Origin: Phytohabitans maris
GTDB taxonomy: Bacteria > Actinomycetota > Actinomycetes > Mycobacteriales > Micromonosporaceae
NCBI RefSeq assembly: GCF_031085175.1
Contig: NZ_JAVHUY010000032.1
Span: forward strand, 1-64,000
Length of the DNA: 64,000 bases
Reading direction: 5' to 3'
Part shown: positions 4,354-26,617 of the stretch, one piece after another
Position numbering within the stretch: the stretch's first letter is position 1
Layout: the number at the start of each line of letters is the position of its first letter
Notes under the pieces: generated by a model
Databases searched by the model: none
What the model was told of the DNA's origin: nothing
Seen by the model: only the letters and a program-made list of their open reading frames with translations
Made by a program: the position numbers and the translations under genes

Positions 4354-4678
4354 CCGGTCGCCTCCCGCCTCGTCGCGCACCCTCCGCCGTATGTTACTGC
4401 CCAGTCAACCCAGCACCTCCATACACGCCTGGAGCTTCCCGGTGCGATGCGGGCTACCCAACCCCTCTCCAGCCCTCAACGATGGTGGCTTGTCAATGTC
4501 TGATAACGGACACCGCCTTCTTTTGGCTACTTGTCTAGGTGGATGGCTATTCTTTGAAATTGCCACGAGGCTCCCGGTCGAAGGGTGATGCGGCCAGTTG
4601 CGTTGGCGCATACGGTCGTAACGAACGGTGATTTGATGGCTGTGGAGTGAGACTCGGCCGGTGAAGGGGAGCTGAGCC
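4354..4678. promoter_or_regulatory. Divergent intergenic region, acyl-CoA operon and defence island
   Basis: This 325-base gap separates the leftward SDR operon from the rightward ParA gene, so it must hold both promoters. At 4394-4408 the sequence TTACTG-CC-CAGTcAA is a rough inverted repeat and a possible TetR operator; on the minus strand it includes TTGACT. From about 4480 the composition becomes clearly more A+T-rich, marking the left edge of the island. I see no tRNA, integrase or obvious attachment repeat. AAGGGGAG precedes the GTG at 4679. Confidence 0.45.
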
Positions 4679-5596
4679 GTGAAGGTGATCTCAATCATCA
4701 ACTTCAAGGGTGGCGTAGGTAAGACCACACTCACGGCTAACATCGGTGCTGGCCTGGCCGCGCGAGGTCTTCGCGTGCTCATTATCGATCTCGACCCGCA
4801 GGCGAGTCTCACCTTCTCCTTCTTCCGGCCCGAGGAGTGGTACGAGAATCTCGCCAACAAGCGCACCATCAAGCAGTGGTACGACAGTGCGGGTCAGGGC
4901 CGTACGCCGACGAGCCTGGCAAGTCTCGTGTCCACACCGCCCCGGGTGGCGCACCTGATCAGCGGGTCAGGTGGCTGGCTGGACATCATCGCATCACACC
5001 TAGATCTGCTCAGCGTCGACCTGTTGCTCGCTTCGGCGCTCGATCCCCGCTCCGGTCAAGTGCCACCGCGTCGATTCGTCAAGGTTCACCAGCGGCTTGC
5101 GGACGGTCTGGCGGAGGGAGTGGGCGACTATGACATCGTGCTGATTGACTGTGCGCCCAACTTCAACTTGGTGACGAAGAACGCTGTAGTAGCGAGCGAC
5201 TTCATGTTGATTCCGACCCGACCTGACTTCCTCTCCACCCGCGGTATCGATCATCTGGGTGGTCAGGCCCGCAGCCTGGTGCGCCGCTACAACGAGCACG
5301 CTGCAGAGGGTGGTGACGGGATCATCAAAGAGCCGAGCTTCGCCGTGGTATTCACCATGGTCACGTTCAGGTCGGACGAGCCCATTGAGGCTCACGCCAC
5401 TTACATTGCCCAAACCCGAGGGCTAGGCGTGCCAACATTCTCGACTCTGGTGCGTGATCGCAAAGCAGTGTACTCGGCCATACCCGAGTCCGGGGTGCCG
5501 GTGGTGCTGGCCGGCTCGGCGCCGCGTGCGGCGCGGCAGGAGACGCGGCAGCTTGTTGACGAATTCAGGAACTGGATCGAAGGGAACGCCCTATGA
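4679..5596 (+). CDS. ParA family ATPase
   Basis: A 305-residue deviant Walker-type ATPase. KGGVGKTT (residues 10-17) is the deviant Walker A motif with the signature lysine, LIIDLDPQASL is the A' motif and VLIDCAPNF the Walker B. Its length equals a stand-alone ParA/Soj. There is no ParB nearby and no plasmid replication gene, so ordinary chromosome or plasmid partitioning is unlikely. The gene's ATGA overlap with the next small gene makes the pair one translational unit. Base composition is lower in G+C than the flanks. ParA-like ATPases do occur as switch or localisation modules in defence islands; that role here is inferred only from the neighbours. Confidence 0.88.
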   Translation: MKVISIINFKGGVGKTTLTANIGAGLAARGLRVLIIDLDPQASLTFSFFRPEEWYENLANKRTIKQWYDSAGQGRTPTSLASLVSTPPRVAHLISGSGGWLDIIASHLDLLSVDLLLASALDPRSGQVPPRRFVKVHQRLADGLAEGVGDYDIVLIDCAPNFNLVTKNAVVASDFMLIPTRPDFLSTRGIDHLGGQARSLVRRYNEHAAEGGDGIIKEPSFAVVFTMVTFRSDEPIEAHATYIAQTRGLGVPTFSTLVRDRKAVYSAIPESGVPVVLAGSAPRAARQETRQLVDEFRNWIEGNAL

Positions 5597-6018
5597 GTCA
5601 TCCCGCCGCGCTAGCCGCGTCCGCGCTGAAGCAGATCTTCCAGGCCCTCGGACGGCTCACCGAGGAGGAACTAACGGACCTCGCCGAGGGCCGGGTTCGG
5701 GTGCAGTTGACCGCACGTCCTGCCCTAACTGCGGCCGGGGCAACTCCTACCAGAAGCCGCTCCAAGGCGAAGGTGGATGTCGAGAGGGTTGCGGAGACCA
5801 TCCGGGATCTCCATACCACGGAGGAAATCGAGGCGTACCTCGAAGAGAACGACAAGGTCTTTACGGTCTCGGTTCTCAAAGAAATCGCGAAGGCTCTCGG
5901 CCCCACTGTTTCCAAGGCGGGAACGCGGAAGGCGGACATTAAGCAGAACATCGTACGAGGGACGATCGGCTTTCGGCAGAGTTCGGCGATGGTCGGCACC
6001 GGCGCGTACCTGGCGTGA
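5593..6018 (+). CDS. Small protein, possible HeH/SAP-like partner of the ParA ATPase
   Basis: I do not recognise this 141-residue protein with certainty. Its N-terminal half is helical (ALKQIFQALGRLTEEELTDLAEG), a basic Ser/Arg/Lys linker follows near residue 55, and the second half contains two short helix motifs (HTTEEIEAYLEEN and LKEIAKALGPTVSKAGTRKADIKQNIV). The last resembles the HeH/LEM/SAP-type fold used for nucleic-acid binding, in which a conserved KADI or KADL ends the motif. The start overlaps the ParA stop by four bases. The stop codon abuts the stop codon of the convergent HEPN gene with no spacer. A ParB-like adaptor role is possible but unproven. Confidence 0.7.
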   Translation: MSHPAALAASALKQIFQALGRLTEEELTDLAEGRVRVQLTARPALTAAGATPTRSRSKAKVDVERVAETIRDLHTTEEIEAYLEENDKVFTVSVLKEIAKALGPTVSKAGTRKADIKQNIVRGTIGFRQSSAMVGTGAYLA

Positions 6019-7188
6019 TCAACCCTGGTCGAGCACGATAAGGATGGCTTCCACGACCTGGTCGATCCAGTCGATCGTCTGCATCGTGCTCGCGGCGTCG
6101 ATGTCCCGCTTGGCAGGACTCTGGGCCGGGTCCTCGTCGTACTCGTGTGCGATCTTGTTGCGGCGGCGCACCGCATCGCCGAGGCGGCGCCTAATTTCCG
6201 CGCCTGTGAATGTACTGGAGTCGCCAGAGCGTTCGCTCAGGACGGTGGCCACTCGTTGCCACAGGTTGCTTACGTCCGCGACCAAGCGCAAGCCGTCACG
6301 GATCTTGTCGGGATTCTGGTAAGTCGCGAATGCGAGCGTGCTGCGCAGGTGTCCGTCAACAGCGTCATGTAGCGTGCGCTTTCCAGCTTGGACGTCCTCC
6401 ACGGCTTCCAGAGGCAACTCGAACCGACGATAACTTTCGGGACGCGTCCGAGAAGGATCGCCCACCATTGCGAGCATCCTCTCGTGGATCTCCTGCCGTA
6501 CCCAGTGGTCCAGTGCCGCCACAGCCTGCACCCAGGCTGCGCGGTAGACATCCTTGACCTCGAAACCGGTAACGCCAAGCCGTTCCAAATGGGAACCTGC
6601 CGTGGCCAGGCTGCGGGCGTAACTGAGGTTTCGCCGGAGGTTGTCCGCCGCACGAAACTCGCCCGATACTTCTGACACCTTCGCGTTCCGTCCCGGGGGC
6701 GGCAAATCCGCAGGCGCCACTGACCCGCTCACAGACAGAAGGCGATCCGTCGCGTCCGGCCTGCTGATCCGGTAGATCGCCGTGAGTGCGGGCGCGGTCG
6801 CCAGGTCTGCGCCGATCTCACTGAGTCGGACGTCCCGCCGCAGCCATCGCACGGGGCGGGTATGGCTTGCCGGCAGGTCGGGACGGTATACATAGTCCCC
6901 AACGATTTCCCCAACGGCAACCTCGGGTGCTCGTGCCCGCAGCAGGACGACCAAGTCGCCGCGTCGCATGGAACTACGCAAGGCCCATAGCTGTGGGGCA
7001 TAGGTGTCTCGGGTCTGCGGCTGTACGCTTCGGTACGCTTCCGCGACGAGGCGTCGGATGTCGCTGATCTTGGTCTGCTCCGAGAGGTCACCTACTTGTC
7101 GCCAGCCCACAGCGATGAGGTCTTCTGAGAAGGCGACGTCCTCGTACTCGTCGTTTCGGCCCGCCCGGACGATCCACGCCTGCGTCAC
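6019..7188 (-). CDS. PUA/EVE-like N-terminal domain fused to a C-terminal HEPN domain
   Basis: A 389-residue two-domain protein. Residues 1 to about 130 (WIVRAGR...VGWRQVGDL...GDLVVLLRA...VAVGEIVGDY) resemble the N-terminal domain of predicted Mrr-type restriction enzymes (COG4127), a PUA/EVE-like fold. Residues about 195-385 are all-helical and end with RRNKIAHEY, giving the HEPN signature R343-x4-H348 typical of HEPN ribonuclease toxins. No PD-(D/E)xK motif is visible. The gene is 12 bases behind the DUF262/HNH gene, so the two are an operon. A modified-base sensor triggering RNA cleavage is a reasonable inference. Start is GTG at 7188. Confidence 0.75.
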   Translation of the reverse strand: MTQAWIVRAGRNDEYEDVAFSEDLIAVGWRQVGDLSEQTKISDIRRLVAEAYRSVQPQTRDTYAPQLWALRSSMRRGDLVVLLRARAPEVAVGEIVGDYVYRPDLPASHTRPVRWLRRDVRLSEIGADLATAPALTAIYRISRPDATDRLLSVSGSVAPADLPPPGRNAKVSEVSGEFRAADNLRRNLSYARSLATAGSHLERLGVTGFEVKDVYRAAWVQAVAALDHWVRQEIHERMLAMVGDPSRTRPESYRRFELPLEAVEDVQAGKRTLHDAVDGHLRSTLAFATYQNPDKIRDGLRLVADVSNLWQRVATVLSERSGDSSTFTGAEIRRRLGDAVRRRNKIAHEYDEDPAQSPAKRDIDAASTMQTIDWIDQVVEAILIVLDQG

Positions 7189-7200
7189 GACTCTTAGGCC

Positions 7201-9222
7201 TCACTCTGTGCTGGTGACAGGGAACGTAATCGGCGGCGCTCCGAGCCACGGGGCCTCCGGGACTGACGGCAACGTTGACAGCGGTCGGGGAAGCGTCGAC
7301 TCGCGCTCGATCACTTGACGCCACTGATCGGGTGTTCCAGTGACCAGGAACGGTCCGACCTGGACCTGGATGGCCTCTTCTACGACCTGGACTGGCACGG
7401 TCTCGCCAGCGATGCGGACATCTCCGTCGATGCCAACGACGCTTGCATCGGTGATCGCCTGCTGGAATTCCGCCATCGCCGCTGACCCGGTCCACCGTAT
7501 GCCGTCACCACTGGCGGTGAAGAGCAGCCGCCCCGGATCCCAGGTGCTGGCGTATAGCACAAGGGACAGCGCATAGCCGTCTATCGGTGCCGCTGGCGAC
7601 GTCGGCAGCCGATCCAGCCACGTGGGCCGAAACTGGGCGAGTAGTTGGTTCATTGATGCCGCCAGCAACCTCCGGCGCTCTTCGAGGAAGGCCGGGTACG
7701 CCTCCGGTTTCCAAAGCGTCTCGGTGAGCGGTATGAGATGAGCGGTCAGCTCCTCAACGTCCAACTGTGGGAAGTACTCGGCCGGCGTTTTTGTGCCGAT
7801 TCTGCGGTTGGCTCGACCAGAGATAAAGACGAGGTTTGCTAGGTCATTGATCTCGGTCTTGTCGTACTGGCCGTCGAGAGTCGCCATTGGATGTACGTGG
7901 TGTGTCTCCAGCTTGCGGTCGCCGTCCGCTCCGGGCAGGATCTCCGTCCCGTACCACCAATCGCGCGCGCCGTTGAGCTGGGCCGCGAGCAGGCTGAGAA
8001 AGGCATAGGGACTCTCCTTCGTTCGGCCCGTGAGAGACTGAACGGTCACCTGAGGGGTGTTCGTCAGGAGGTCGAGATTGCCCAGTAGCGCCTGCATCGG
8101 GTCCGGGCGCCTAGCGGCGCGAATGTCGCGGCTGAGGGTCGTGTCGGTGGACCCGCCGTACCGGCCCTGCATAGTGGCGACTAGCAGCCAGTAGATGACA
8201 CCGTCGCTCAGTTCTTTGTCAAGCGGGGCATCCGGCCGTTCTCCGAGAAACACGACAAGGGGGATCAGGGCGAGCATCGAGGGAAGCGGCCCAGACCCAG
8301 TGAGCTTTAGATTGGCGCGTAGCAGCGCCGCGACATGTCTCAGTCCGCGGCACACTGTGGCCCATCCTTGATCGAGATCCTCGTCCGACGCCGTCGCCAG
8401 CCTTCCATGGGACCACCCGGACAGACCGCCCCCAAGGACCACACCGGCCAGCGCCCTCGACAGAAAGTTCACGTCGATATCGGCGTAGCCTTGGCGACGC
8501 CAGTAGTCGGCCTGACCCTGGAGCTTTTCCAGCACCCCTGGCCATCGTGCTGACAGGGTTGCCATCGCGAGATCCAAGGTCCCGAGACGCCGTCCGCCGC
8601 TGTTGACGCGTACGAAGATCTCAGCCACCGTCTCGTATGGAAACCCCTTGAGGATCTCCATGTGGAAGCGGTGCTCCCGAAACTGCCGGATCCGCCCGAG
8701 ACGCTGTTCGATCTCGGTGTCCTCAAGCTGGCTACCTGCGTCGATCAGTCTCTTGGTGAGCCTCAGCATGCTGGCCTTCGGATCCAGCACCTCCGACAGT
8801 TTGATCCAGCGTGGATCTTGCCGCGTGGCCGCGCTCTGGTTCTGGAACCTTTCCCGTTCGATGTTGAAGACGATCTGTGCGTCGGGGTGGTCAGCGAACA
8901 CGCGATGTAGGGATGTCAGGCGCTGCTGCCCATCGAGCAGATAGAGCGGAGGCCGGACCGGTGTGACCGCGACGTCCGTGATAGCCATTTCTCGGACGAC
9001 CGGAGCGTCCTCGGCCTGCCAGAAGAGTAGCGAGCCGGAGGGAAAACTCCGGTACAGCGAGTCCATCAACTTGGCGATCTGGGTGGGCTTCCAAACGAAA
9101 TCACGCTGCAGTTCGGGCAGCTTGATCTCGGCACGCCCTATCTGGTCGATCAACTCTCCGACAGAACGTTCCGTCTTCTCCACGTGCACGTGGGCCGCCT
9201 CGGCATCATCGACTATGGGCAC
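7201..9222 (-). CDS. DUF262 and HNH (GmrSD-type) restriction protein
   Basis: A 673-residue protein of the GmrSD/type IV restriction class. The N-terminal DUF262 (GmrS-like, ParB-nuclease-related) domain shows IKLPELQRDFVW at 33-44, LLDGQQRLTSL around 97-104 and VRVNSGG near 207. A second nuclease region at about 437-485 has ETHHVHP, then NDLANLVF and a downstream N-R-I-G-x-K-x-P-x-E-Y pattern, matching the HNH-like DUF1524 (GmrD) module. Family members use nucleotide hydrolysis to cut DNA with modified cytosines. A C-terminal extension of about 130 residues is unfamiliar. The chosen GTG at 9222 has a poor ribosome site, but a 10-codon frame with a strong site overlaps it. Confidence 0.88.
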   Translation of the reverse strand: MPIVDDAEAAHVHVEKTERSVGELIDQIGRAEIKLPELQRDFVWKPTQIAKLMDSLYRSFPSGSLLFWQAEDAPVVREMAITDVAVTPVRPPLYLLDGQQRLTSLHRVFADHPDAQIVFNIERERFQNQSAATRQDPRWIKLSEVLDPKASMLRLTKRLIDAGSQLEDTEIEQRLGRIRQFREHRFHMEILKGFPYETVAEIFVRVNSGGRRLGTLDLAMATLSARWPGVLEKLQGQADYWRRQGYADIDVNFLSRALAGVVLGGGLSGWSHGRLATASDEDLDQGWATVCRGLRHVAALLRANLKLTGSGPLPSMLALIPLVVFLGERPDAPLDKELSDGVIYWLLVATMQGRYGGSTDTTLSRDIRAARRPDPMQALLGNLDLLTNTPQVTVQSLTGRTKESPYAFLSLLAAQLNGARDWWYGTEILPGADGDRKLETHHVHPMATLDGQYDKTEINDLANLVFISGRANRRIGTKTPAEYFPQLDVEELTAHLIPLTETLWKPEAYPAFLEERRRLLAASMNQLLAQFRPTWLDRLPTSPAAPIDGYALSLVLYASTWDPGRLLFTASGDGIRWTGSAAMAEFQQAITDASVVGIDGDVRIAGETVPVQVVEEAIQVQVGPFLVTGTPDQWRQVIERESTLPRPLSTLPSVPEAPWLGAPPITFPVTSTE

Positions 9223-9238
9223 AGATCCGCAGGTGCAT

Positions 9239-9841
9239 TCTCTCCCCTGAGGAACGCCCGTGTCGTGGCAGAAATCAGACAGTTTCGCCGAGCCGTCGAC
9301 CTCCGCCCCAGCTGTTCCACAGACGCCCTGGGGTGATCCGAGGAGCGTGACGGCGAAACGAGGAGGTGGCCTCGCTGGTCGAGGACGACGCCGAGTTCGT
9401 CATCCACGGGATACAGCGGGCAAGGCGCTCTCGTGCCGACCGCCGTGCCGAACAAAGGTGGACTGAGGCGAACTATCCCGCGACGGAAGCTGGCCAGTCT
9501 TAGAGACAGACGAGACCCTGGCGAGGGTCTATACGCAGCCGGGCGGAGCCGGTAGCCAACACGGGTGCAGACGTTAGCACACTCCGCTCGACACGAGGTC
9601 GGGCCGTGTTCAGCGGCGACGGGGCGCTGGTGCTCACGTACGCGCTCTAGGTCGAAGGTCTTTGCCAACTCGACAATTACGGCACGACCATCTGGCGGTG
9701 TAGGCGTACCCATTGCTCCTGCAGGCGATGCTCGACATGGTCTCAGCGACGACCAACCCGGCGAAGGCACCGGCCGACACTCAGCCCAGCCGCACGCGCG
9801 GGTGTGGTCCACAGTAGATCCGAGCCGATAGCATGTGCTCG
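9239..9841. other. Intergenic region of 603 bases, island right edge
   Basis: No convincing gene is visible. CAGGGGAGA at the left end is a strong minus-strand ribosome site for a 10-codon frame (9206-9238). A minus-strand frame around 9600-9720 reads MGTPTPPDGRAVIVELAKTF and then degrades, which may be a gene remnant but matches nothing I know. Composition returns towards the high-G+C background to the right. No terminal repeats, tRNA or transposase could be recognised. Confidence 0.4.
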
Positions 9842-10285
9842 ATGGCTGACGACGGAGGTGCCGGGCGCAAGCCGCCACTGCGGCCGCGTTACCGGCGGCC
9901 CGAGCCGGAGCGGCCGGCCAGCCGGCCCGCGTCGGTCTGGGTCGTGTCGGTGCTGCTGGTCCTCTTCGGGGTGCTGGGCGCGGTGCTCGGCGTGCTGCTC
10001 GTGCGGGACGCGGTCGCCCACGGCGAGGAGGACGAGGTCGTCGCGGCCGGGGTGTTCGCCGTGCTGCTGGCCGCCGCGCAGGTGGTGTCGGGCGTGGGCG
10101 TCTTCGCCGGCTGGGCCCGCGGCCGGGTGCTGGCGATGCTGGTCTGCGCCGCCAACGTCGTGCTGGTCATCGTCGGCGCCGCCACCGACCGGGTCGGCTC
10201 GGGGCAGTCGTGGCTGGCGATCGCGTTCTACGGCGCGCTGCTCTTCGGCCTCGCCGGCCCGAAGATCAGCGACTGGTGCAAGTAG
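9842..10285 (+). CDS. Small integral membrane protein, function unknown
   Basis: A 147-residue protein with a charged proline/arginine-rich cytoplasmic leader of about 30 residues followed by roughly four hydrophobic segments (VWVVSVLLVLFGVLGAVLGV, VVAAGVFAVLLAAAQVVSGV, VLAMLVCAANVVLVIV, WLAIAFYGALLFGLAG). No conserved catalytic motif is apparent. Such short proteins are common in actinomycetes and mostly uncharacterised. Two in-frame ATGs exist at 9833 and 9842; neither has a strong ribosome site, and I took the second. It ends shortly before a palindromic element that separates it from the convergent kinase-like gene. Confidence 0.7.
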   Translation: MADDGGAGRKPPLRPRYRRPEPERPASRPASVWVVSVLLVLFGVLGAVLGVLLVRDAVAHGEEDEVVAAGVFAVLLAAAQVVSGVGVFAGWARGRVLAMLVCAANVVLVIVGAATDRVGSGQSWLAIAFYGALLFGLAGPKISDWCK

Positions 10286-10303: not shown

Positions 10304-10357
10304 GTGATCGAAGCTCCTCTCACGTCGTTCTAACGACTTGAGAGGAGCTTCGATCAC
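10304..10357. repeat. Family 1 palindrome (GTGATCGAAGCTCC), bidirectional terminator
   Basis: A long hairpin whose outer arms are GTGATCGAAGCTCC and its complement, with an inner CGTTcta-AACG loop region. It lies between two convergent genes. Near-identical hairpins occur at 16339-16392 and 26564-26617, each also between convergent genes, so this is a dispersed element that probably works as a bidirectional terminator. Confidence 0.85.
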
Positions 10358-16338: not shown

Positions 16339-16392
16339 GTGATCGAAGCTCCCCTCATGTCGTTCTAACGACTTGAAGGGAGCTTCGATCAC
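16339..16392. repeat. Family 1 palindrome embedding a stop codon
   Basis: The second copy of the GTGATCGAAGCTCC hairpin. It fills the gap between the convergent sigma-fusion gene and the TetR gene at 16389-17012. Read on the minus strand, the TGA inside GTGATCGAAG is the stop codon of the TetR gene, so the element provides both stop codon and terminator-like hairpin. Confidence 0.85.
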
Positions 16393-26563: not shown

Positions 26564-26617
26564 GTGATCGAAGCTCCCGTCAAGTCGTTCCAGCGGCGTG
26601 ACGGGAGCTTCGATCAC
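26564..26617. repeat. Family 1 palindrome embedding a stop codon
   Basis: The third copy of the GTGATCGAAGCTCC hairpin, between the convergent pectate lyase and MarR genes. The MarR gene's TGA stop (26616-26614 on the minus strand) lies inside GTGATCGAAG, exactly as for the TetR gene at the second copy. Confidence 0.85.

What the first reader, a model, noticed from the sequence alone, without database searches (positions are those of the whole stretch)
4679..9222. Compact putative defence island: ParA plus small partner facing a GmrSD-type protein plus reader-HEPN protein
Seen: lower G+C than both flanks, two tight pairs of genes meeting tail to tail with stop codons abutting (TGA then TCA). 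Known: DUF262/HNH proteins (GmrSD) restrict modified DNA and HEPN proteins are RNase toxins in many defence systems. Inferred: all four genes act together, with DNA restriction backed by RNA-cleaving suicide. I know of no described system with this exact four-gene set.
Basis: partly seen in the sequence, partly recalled or inferred. Interest (0 to 1): 0.78.

Follow-up and report, generated by a model that had tools for sequence, protein, structure and literature searches.

The report
ParA-linked DNA/RNA nuclease defence module
A small acquired gene cluster in an actinobacterium joins a predicted DNA-cutting enzyme and a predicted RNA-cutting enzyme to a chromosome-partition-type ATPase and its helper, and comparison with related genomes suggests that the ATPase pair is a dedicated partner of such defence enzymes, which can be tested.

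Summary
The four genes are real and intact in sequence: ParA ATPase, small partner, EVE/YTH-like reader fused to HEPN, and BrxU-like GmrSD. They share GC3 of 0.74-0.75 (four flanking genes 0.96-0.98) and lie in a 5.4-kb insert that two of five same-genus genomes lack.

The exact four-gene set was seen only here: 1 of 150 same-family genomes, and 0 of 11 loci from a pattern-limited scan of other species. Sub-sets recur. ParA-small stands tail to tail with GmrSD alone (two genomes), with reader-HEPN alone (two genomes, two families), or near other nucleases or helicases. GmrSD-HEPN without ParA sits by BREX/Pgl genes.

ParA has the small gene beside it in 62 of 63 called family loci. Partner type follows the ParA tree: 12 changes, against at least 33 in 200 label shuffles.

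Best reading: a modification-sensing DNase/RNase defence unit whose ParA-small pair restrains or licenses the nucleases at self DNA. The nuclease half is well supported by sequence; the ParA role is inferred, partly by analogy with published plasmid ParAB work.

New variant of a known kind.

The parts
4412..9803 (.). Acquired insert between an SDR gene and a 147-aa gene; absent from G091 and G103
   Evidence: blastn of window against the empty sites: left flank matches to 4411, right flank resumes at 9796 (G103) or 9804 (G091); 16 bp (G091) or 170 bp (G103) stand in its place
4679..5596 (+). ParA/MinD-type deviant Walker A ATPase, 305 aa; KGGVGKTT with signature lysine
   Evidence: Pfam AAA_31 7.6e-34; K10 G11 G12 V13 K15 T16 T17, D37, D39, D157 invariant in 19 aligned sequences
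5593..6018 (+). Small partner, 141 aa: N-terminal helical part, linker, C-terminal helical domain with a weak SAP-like signal
6019..7188 (-). EVE/YTH-like reader fused to HEPN, 389 aa
6715..7188 (-). EVE/YTH-like reader domain (residues 1-158)
   Evidence: PADLOC PDC-S02 1.5e-35 at residues 1-154
6145..6162 (-). HEPN motif R343-N-K-I-A-H348 (R-x4-H)
   Evidence: R343 and H348 invariant in 9 aligned sequences; R-x4-6-H as the HEPN motif: PMC3710099 passage
7201..9222 (-). GmrSD/BrxU-type protein, predicted modification-dependent DNA endonuclease, 673 aa
   Evidence: Pfam GmrSD_N 3.1e-24; PADLOC HEC-05 1e-39 (HEC-05 = BrxU per PMC11411939 passage); profile matches structure 7p9k, a DUF262 protein, 8.2e-24 (that 7p9k is BrxU is recalled)
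8920..8934 (-). DGQQR motif of DUF262 (residues 97-101)
   Evidence: invariant in 8 aligned sequences
7834..7902 (-). Likely His-Me/HNH (DUF1524-like) residues H441 H442 ... N459 ... N463
   Evidence: invariant in 8 aligned sequences; Pfam GmrSD_C only 0.073 at 437-521

Best explanation
The island is one acquired anti-phage/anti-plasmid module. GmrSD cuts incoming modified DNA. The EVE/YTH-HEPN protein is a second effector that uses its reader domain to sense modified (or otherwise marked) nucleic acid and releases RNase activity. The ParA-small pair is not a partition system but a partner-specific control unit: the ParA ATPase, ATP-loaded on the host nucleoid and coupled to a DNA-binding small protein, restrains or licenses the nucleases so that they spare self DNA and are freed on foreign or replicating DNA. 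Shown here: one insert, intact catalytic motifs, ParA-small pairing, recurrent and ParA-clade-specific linkage to nucleases, and BREX genes beside two close GmrSD-HEPN pairs. Inferred: modified-DNA specificity, RNase activity, DNA binding by the small protein, physical contact, and that the ParA effect is restraint rather than activation.
For: Single insert and uniform GC3. Intact motifs in GmrSD, reader-HEPN and ParA. Each pairwise link is seen without the fourth gene: ParA-small with GmrSD (L033, L044), with reader-HEPN (L063; L116 Actinophytocola xanthii, Pseudonocardiaceae), and GmrSD-HEPN alone (L053/L121, L054, L113, L114, L119). ParA-small also lies near other nucleases: an HNH protein with a partial, below-cut-off match to the PT-DNA restriction model (L085), AspBHI_N-Mrr (L035, 621 bp away), a second GmrSD type (L110), RAMA-CBS-HEPN near the DS-11 model (8 loci), PIN_8 (L162, L163). 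Partner type tracks ParA phylogeny: 12 changes against at least 33 in 200 shuffles; partner-bearing rows only, 9 changes (the minimum for 10 states) against at least 15. GmrSD-HEPN lies beside BrxC/PglY and PglZ (L053) and PglX (L054). PMC8544851 (passages read): over-expressed pQBR57 parAB relieved the cost of that plasmid, and mutations of PFLU4242 and of the par repressor were not additive; PMC11637435 (passages read) describes PFLU4242 as GmrSD-like.
Against: 15 of 63 called family rows and 18 of 20 fetched loci of a second family have no nuclease or HelR-type helicase that I recognised beside ParA; 5 of those 20 also lack the small gene. The commonest partner (30 of 63 family rows) is a HelD/HelR-like helicase, not a nuclease. 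GmrSD-HEPN pairs by BREX do without ParA, so ParA is not needed by the nucleases as such. The four-gene set is a single case. The small protein's fold is unsettled. Partner type and ParA phylogeny would also agree by plain vertical inheritance. In PMC8544851 the same parAB gave no benefit for a second plasmid, pQBR103, and may have worsened its cost.
Confidence: 0.5

Rival explanations
1. Two independent units lie side by side: a GmrSD plus EVE-HEPN defence pair as found by BREX genes, and a chromosomal ParA-small pair of unrelated (nucleoid or maintenance) function.
For: The pairs occur apart; such a ParA is common (49 of 150 family genomes) and is often without a nuclease neighbour (15 of 63 family rows and 18 of 20 second-family loci with no partner that I recognised).
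Against: 3 of 8 near-full-length GmrSD homologues and 2 of 7 full-length reader-HEPN lie at a ParA-small pair, against about 0.001 expected under my rough estimate of 1.05 million genes; ParA clades are partner-specific; tail-to-tail abutment recurs.
Confidence: 0.22
2. ParA-small positions or delivers the nucleases (as McdA-McdB positions its cargo, recalled), spreading them over the nucleoid or to foreign DNA: an activator rather than a restraint.
For: ParA keeps its nucleotide-binding residues; the recognised partners are nucleic-acid enzymes, helicases included, which fits delivery better than an antidote; parAB gave no benefit, perhaps harm, with pQBR103 (PMC8544851).
Against: No localisation data; with pQBR57 itself parAB over-expression lowered the cost.
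Confidence: 0.18
3. A toxin-antitoxin or addiction module: HEPN (and GmrSD) as toxins, ParA or the small protein as antitoxin, serving persistence of the insert.
For: PMC3710099 (passages read) proposed ParA/Soj ATPases as antitoxins of HEPN RNases of the MAE_18760 family.
Against: The only Pfam match of the HEPN here is RiboL-PSP, not MAE_18760; the ParA-small operon runs opposite to the nucleases; GmrSD-HEPN pairs exist without ParA beside them.
Confidence: 0.1

Closest known systems
GmrSD / BrxU (HEC-05) type IV restriction enzymes
   Same: DUF262 with DGQQR, likely His-Me residues; PADLOC HEC-05 is the best match; two homologues lie beside BREX/Pgl genes
   Different: The C-terminal Pfam model is below its cut-off; linked to ParA-small and to a reader-HEPN protein
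EVE/YTH-gated effectors (EVE-HNH such as VcaM4I; YTH and HEPN domains in CoCoNuTs)
   Same: Modified-base reader fold placed with a nuclease
   Different: HEPN does not occur in the main text of the EVE census PMC7641849 (0 occurrences); I did not see this fusion in the passages of PMC11090510. Neither paper was read whole
DS-11 (CBS-HEPN, DefensePredictor)
   Same: A RAMA-CBS-HEPN relative (250 bits, cut-off 260) is the partner of ParA-small in 8 loci
   Different: DS-11 is described as a one-protein system; ParA does not occur in that paper's main text (0 occurrences); DS-11 is not in the window
HEPN (MAE_18760)-ParA/Soj dyad proposed in 2013
   Same: ParA-type ATPase beside a HEPN protein
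   Different: Other HEPN family by Pfam, extra small partner, GmrSD added; here the HEPN gene is convergent with ParA-small
ParABS / McdAB positioning systems
   Same: ParA ATPase plus small adjacent partner
   Different: No ParB-like match of the partner; no repeat array in the insert; McdAB comparison is recalled

Membership tests
GmrSD/BrxU type IV restriction | DUF262 domain with DGQQR | tested here: met
   Pfam 3.1e-24; D97-R101 invariant in 8
GmrSD/BrxU type IV restriction | DUF1524/His-Me nuclease domain | tested here: inconclusive
   H441 H442 N459 N463 invariant in 8 and fit the H, N, N pattern, but Pfam GmrSD_C is only 0.073, below cut-off; no structure made
GmrSD/BrxU type IV restriction | cuts modified but not unmodified DNA | not testable with these tools
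   needs biochemistry
HEPN RNase | R-x4-6-H motif | tested here: met
   R343-x4-H348 invariant in 9
HEPN RNase | HEPN fold | tested here: met
EVE/YTH/PUA reader | EVE/YTH fold | tested here: met
EVE/YTH/PUA reader | base-binding pocket | not tested
   no pocket analysis made
ParA/MinD ATPase | deviant Walker A with signature lysine | tested here: met
   K10-G-G-V-x-K15-T-T, 19 of 19
ParABS partition | ParB partner | tested here: inconclusive
   no ParB-like Pfam, NCBIfam or PHROG match for the small protein and no PDB match under E 0.35; small divergent ParB types could be missed
ParABS partition | parS-like repeats | tested here: inconclusive
   only two two-copy direct repeats in 4380-9860, likely chance; a parS motif itself was not searched
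HEPN MAE_18760-ParA dyad | MAE_18760-type HEPN | tested here: inconclusive
   the only Pfam hit up to E 1 is RiboL-PSP, 6e-4
SAP-domain protein (small) | SAP fold | tested here: inconclusive

The most novel reading that the evidence does not exclude
A lineage-restricted ParA-small pair is a general-purpose immune control unit: separate ParA clades are each dedicated to one effector type (GmrSD, EVE-HEPN, RAMA-CBS-HEPN, HNH, methyl-directed Mrr, PIN, HelD-like helicase), and it tells self from non-self by the state of DNA on the nucleoid, so that partition-type ATPases double as immune regulators.
Probability: 0.3. Interest if true: 0.82.

Novelty: new variant of a known kind. Interest (0 to 1): 0.62.

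Why it matters
How cells keep modification-dependent nucleases and HEPN RNases from harming themselves is a standing question. A ParA-type ATPase pair whose clades are each tied to one such enzyme type gives a concrete, genetically testable candidate for that control. It could also bear on the published finding that plasmid ParAB over-expression relieved one plasmid's cost in a strain where a GmrSD-like gene is implicated in that cost. The partners listed here are ready candidate defence effectors in Micromonosporaceae.

Tried and rejected
Simple plasmid or phage remnant: ParA gave no match in plasmids at E 1e-40 or phages at E 1e-20, and the small protein none in plasmids at E 0.01; no tRNA in the window and no integrase noticed among the ORFs (by eye). 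A phage ParA profile does match (phrog_164, 3.9e-50), so a distant phage or plasmid origin is not excluded. A fixed four-gene system: rejected, since only the window has it. Random partner swapping on ParA: not favoured, because partner types follow ParA clades. HEPN tree: does not settle whether the window's reader-HEPN came with the GmrSD lineage. Viral contigs: no reader-HEPN relative, three distant GmrSD relatives at 27-30%. Small-protein profile in 396 phylum genomes: 2 genomes, both of the window's family, but only about 10 of some 75-270 candidates per genome were scored, so absence elsewhere is weak evidence. ParA profile in 246 class genomes: 13 genomes, 2 of this family and 11 of one other, unnamed family; 9 candidates scored per genome.

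Control of neighbours: 36 non-HelR downstream genes gave RAMA 8, CBS 8, GmrSD_N 3, and single AspBHI_N, Endonuclease_1 and AAA_11/12, along with many single metabolic families; 36 upstream neighbours gave ResIII 5, Helicase_C 5, NOV_C 3, N6_Mtase 1 (only the first 25 of 57 and 59 families are shown). The upstream side is thus also rich in defence-type helicases (L035: HmaA 1262.6 bits) and is not a clean negative control.

Paper searches for a ParA-GmrSD or ParA-HEPN defence system: (listings capped). Among the eight papers of which I read passages, only the 2013 proposal and the two plasmid-cost papers bear on it. A listing (not opened) shows a MazF6/Soj-like study, PMC3834876. Most subscription journals are not held.

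Dropped rows: of 67 ParA matches (my count of the list) 64 neighbourhoods were fetched (not G039, G063, G074 C78); one (L041) was missed by the second gene caller, leaving 63. Two rows (L111, L112, near contig ends) were left unlabelled in the tree. Fifteen labels were set by hand, among them four HelR rows where the helicase is not the next gene called (L087, L089, L100, L107). From the neighbour control one L097 gene was left out on each side (36 of 37). My gene caller is home-made, and its profile for the small gene was built partly from the same loci, so starts, gaps and the 62 of 63 are approximate.
Full report
OBSERVATION. G+C in 1-kb windows falls to 0.60-0.66 from 0.70-0.78 on either side (a second dip to 0.67-0.68 lies near 17 kb). 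GC3 of the four genes is 0.74-0.75 against 0.964-0.981 for four flanking genes. Of five other genomes of the genus, two (G091, G103) have the flanking SDR gene and the 147-aa gene adjacent; the other three do not keep the two genes together or lack a match to the second. Alignment puts the extra DNA at 4412-9803, with 16 bp in its place in G091 and 170 bp in G103. The four genes therefore most likely arrived as one block.

NEIGHBOURHOODS. The same 150 genomes of the family were searched with each gene. Reader-HEPN: 22 of 150 genomes at any level, 7 full-length places. GmrSD: 47 of 150, 8 near-full-length places at 44% identity or more. Small: 30 of 150. ParA (E 1e-40): 49 of 150, 67 places. 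Only the window has all four together. Of 64 fetched ParA neighbourhoods 63 were called by my gene finder; 62 of 63 have the small gene next to ParA, L074 being the exception. GmrSD stands tail to tail with the small gene in L033 (G057) and L044 (G114); reader-HEPN does so in L063 (G067) and in L116 (Actinophytocola xanthii, Pseudonocardiaceae). GmrSD-HEPN without ParA beside it is found in G096/L121, G118/L054, and in Micromonospora chokoriensis, lutea and noduli (L113, L114, L119). These five share a divergent neighbour of 1235-1248 aa, so they may be one ancestral event. In L053 (G096) that neighbour is BrxC/PglY (1511.6 bits), followed by PglZ (841.8 bits); in L054 PglX (1721.6 bits) lies on the other side. 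For L113, L114 and L119 I infer the same from size only. GmrSD-family enzymes are reported to complement BREX (PMC12839542, one passage read).

OTHER PARTNERS OF PARA-SMALL. HelD/HelR-like helicases are the commonest, 30 of 63 called family rows. The one scanned (L037) falls far below the curated HelR cut-offs (339 of 1100 and 258 of 750 bits). Of 38 strong matches to it in the 150 genomes, 34 lie within about 3 kb of a ParA hit (counted by hand). RAMA-CBS-HEPN proteins (L079: 250 bits to the DS-11 model, cut-off 260) follow ParA-small in 8 loci, all in the same direction. Of 18 near-full-length DS-11-like matches, 8 of the 9 at 53% identity or more are beside a ParA hit and none of the 9 at 43-46%. 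Single cases: an HNH protein with a partial match to the PT-DNA restriction model (68 of 180 bits; L085), AspBHI_N-Mrr 621 bp away (L035), a full GmrSD with a weak C-terminal alkyltransferase-like match (L110), SF1 helicase-PLD 347 bp away (L104), and, in the second family, PIN_8 in two loci (L162, L163). L035, L085, L104 and L112 have a SNF2/ResIII helicase upstream, with NOV_C in three; in L035 it matches HmaA at 1262.6 bits. Against this, 15 of 63 family rows and 18 of 20 second-family loci have no nuclease or HelR-type helicase that I recognised beside ParA, and 5 of those 20 lack the small gene. In L149 and L152 the facing gene reads, by eye, as a transporter; L164 and L165 have an upstream gene with a weak GmrSD profile score (about 24 bits), not followed.

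IS THE LINK MORE THAN CHANCE? With 62 ParA-small loci and my rough figure of 1.05 million genes in 150 genomes, about 0.001 adjacent GmrSD or reader-HEPN genes are expected; 3 of 8 and 2 of 7 are seen (in the window GmrSD is one gene away). On a ParA tree of 84 rows (82 labelled, some by hand) partner type needs 12 changes; 200 label shuffles need at least 33 (mean 39.7). With partner-bearing rows only, 9 changes for 10 states in 49 rows, the minimum possible, against at least 15. The window's ParA groups with those of L033 and L044 (SH-aLRT 99), that of L063 with that of L116 (99). Several states are single rows, the tree is a quick one with long branches, and vertical inheritance alone would give agreement. 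Still, L063 and L116 come from different families and their flanking genes differ in size and order. Gaps of 12 bp or less are seen in 24 of 32 partner-bearing convergent loci (17 of 25 helicase loci, 7 of 7 others) against 31 of 118 other convergent pairs.

ORIGIN. In the GmrSD tree the window lies between ParA-linked (L033, L044) and HEPN-linked homologues (94/94, just under the star), with L055, L056 and L057 outside a 100/100 branch. L057 itself follows reader-like and CBS-HEPN-like genes. An order ParA-GmrSD, then ParA-HEPN-GmrSD, then HEPN-GmrSD by BREX fits, but the HEPN tree does not confirm it.

MECHANISM. ParA plus its small partner most likely act as a control unit on host DNA. The restraint direction rests on analogy. 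In Pseudomonas fluorescens, over-expression of pQBR57 parAB relieved the cost of that plasmid, and mutations in PFLU4242 and in the par repressor were not additive (PMC8544851, passages read); PFLU4242 was later described as GmrSD-like (PMC11637435, passages read). The same parAB gave no benefit with pQBR103 and may have worsened its cost, so the effect is not general. A ParA/Soj ATPase was proposed as antitoxin of another HEPN family in 2013 (PMC3710099, passages read). The helicase partners fit delivery or positioning better, so that rival stays open.

VERDICT. The four-gene set is one member, the fullest seen, of a modular group. It is ordinary in its nucleases and unusual in its ParA partner.

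Noticed in passing
window 10306-10355, 16341-16390, 26566-26615: A palindromic repeat of about 50-55 bp between genes, three copies in the window. The search of the own genome gave 78 matches; as both strands of a palindrome match, that is roughly 40 or more copies, a REP-like family.
   Followed up: partly
L053 6193-14896, L054: GmrSD plus EVE-HEPN pair beside BREX/Pgl genes (BrxC/PglY and PglZ in L053, PglX in L054); L113, L114 and L119 look alike by gene size. A possible BREX accessory pair.
   Followed up: partly
L072 (own genome, C64) and 29 other called loci: ParA-small near a HelD/HelR-like helicase, mostly tail to tail; the one scanned is far below the curated HelR cut-offs. Function of this recurrent trio unknown.
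   Followed up: partly
L068, L069, L070: Proteins that match the same EVE-like reader at the N-terminus and DS-11-like CBS-HEPN further on: reader exchange between HEPN effectors.
   Followed up: partly
L061 7119-10055: HEPN-only protein (216 aa) followed by a GmrSD with a C-terminal RAMA domain (730 aa): another HEPN-GmrSD pairing.
   Followed up: partly
L034 11829-13523: A weak DndB-like protein (8.5e-5, below cut-off) upstream of a ParA-small pair.
   Followed up: no
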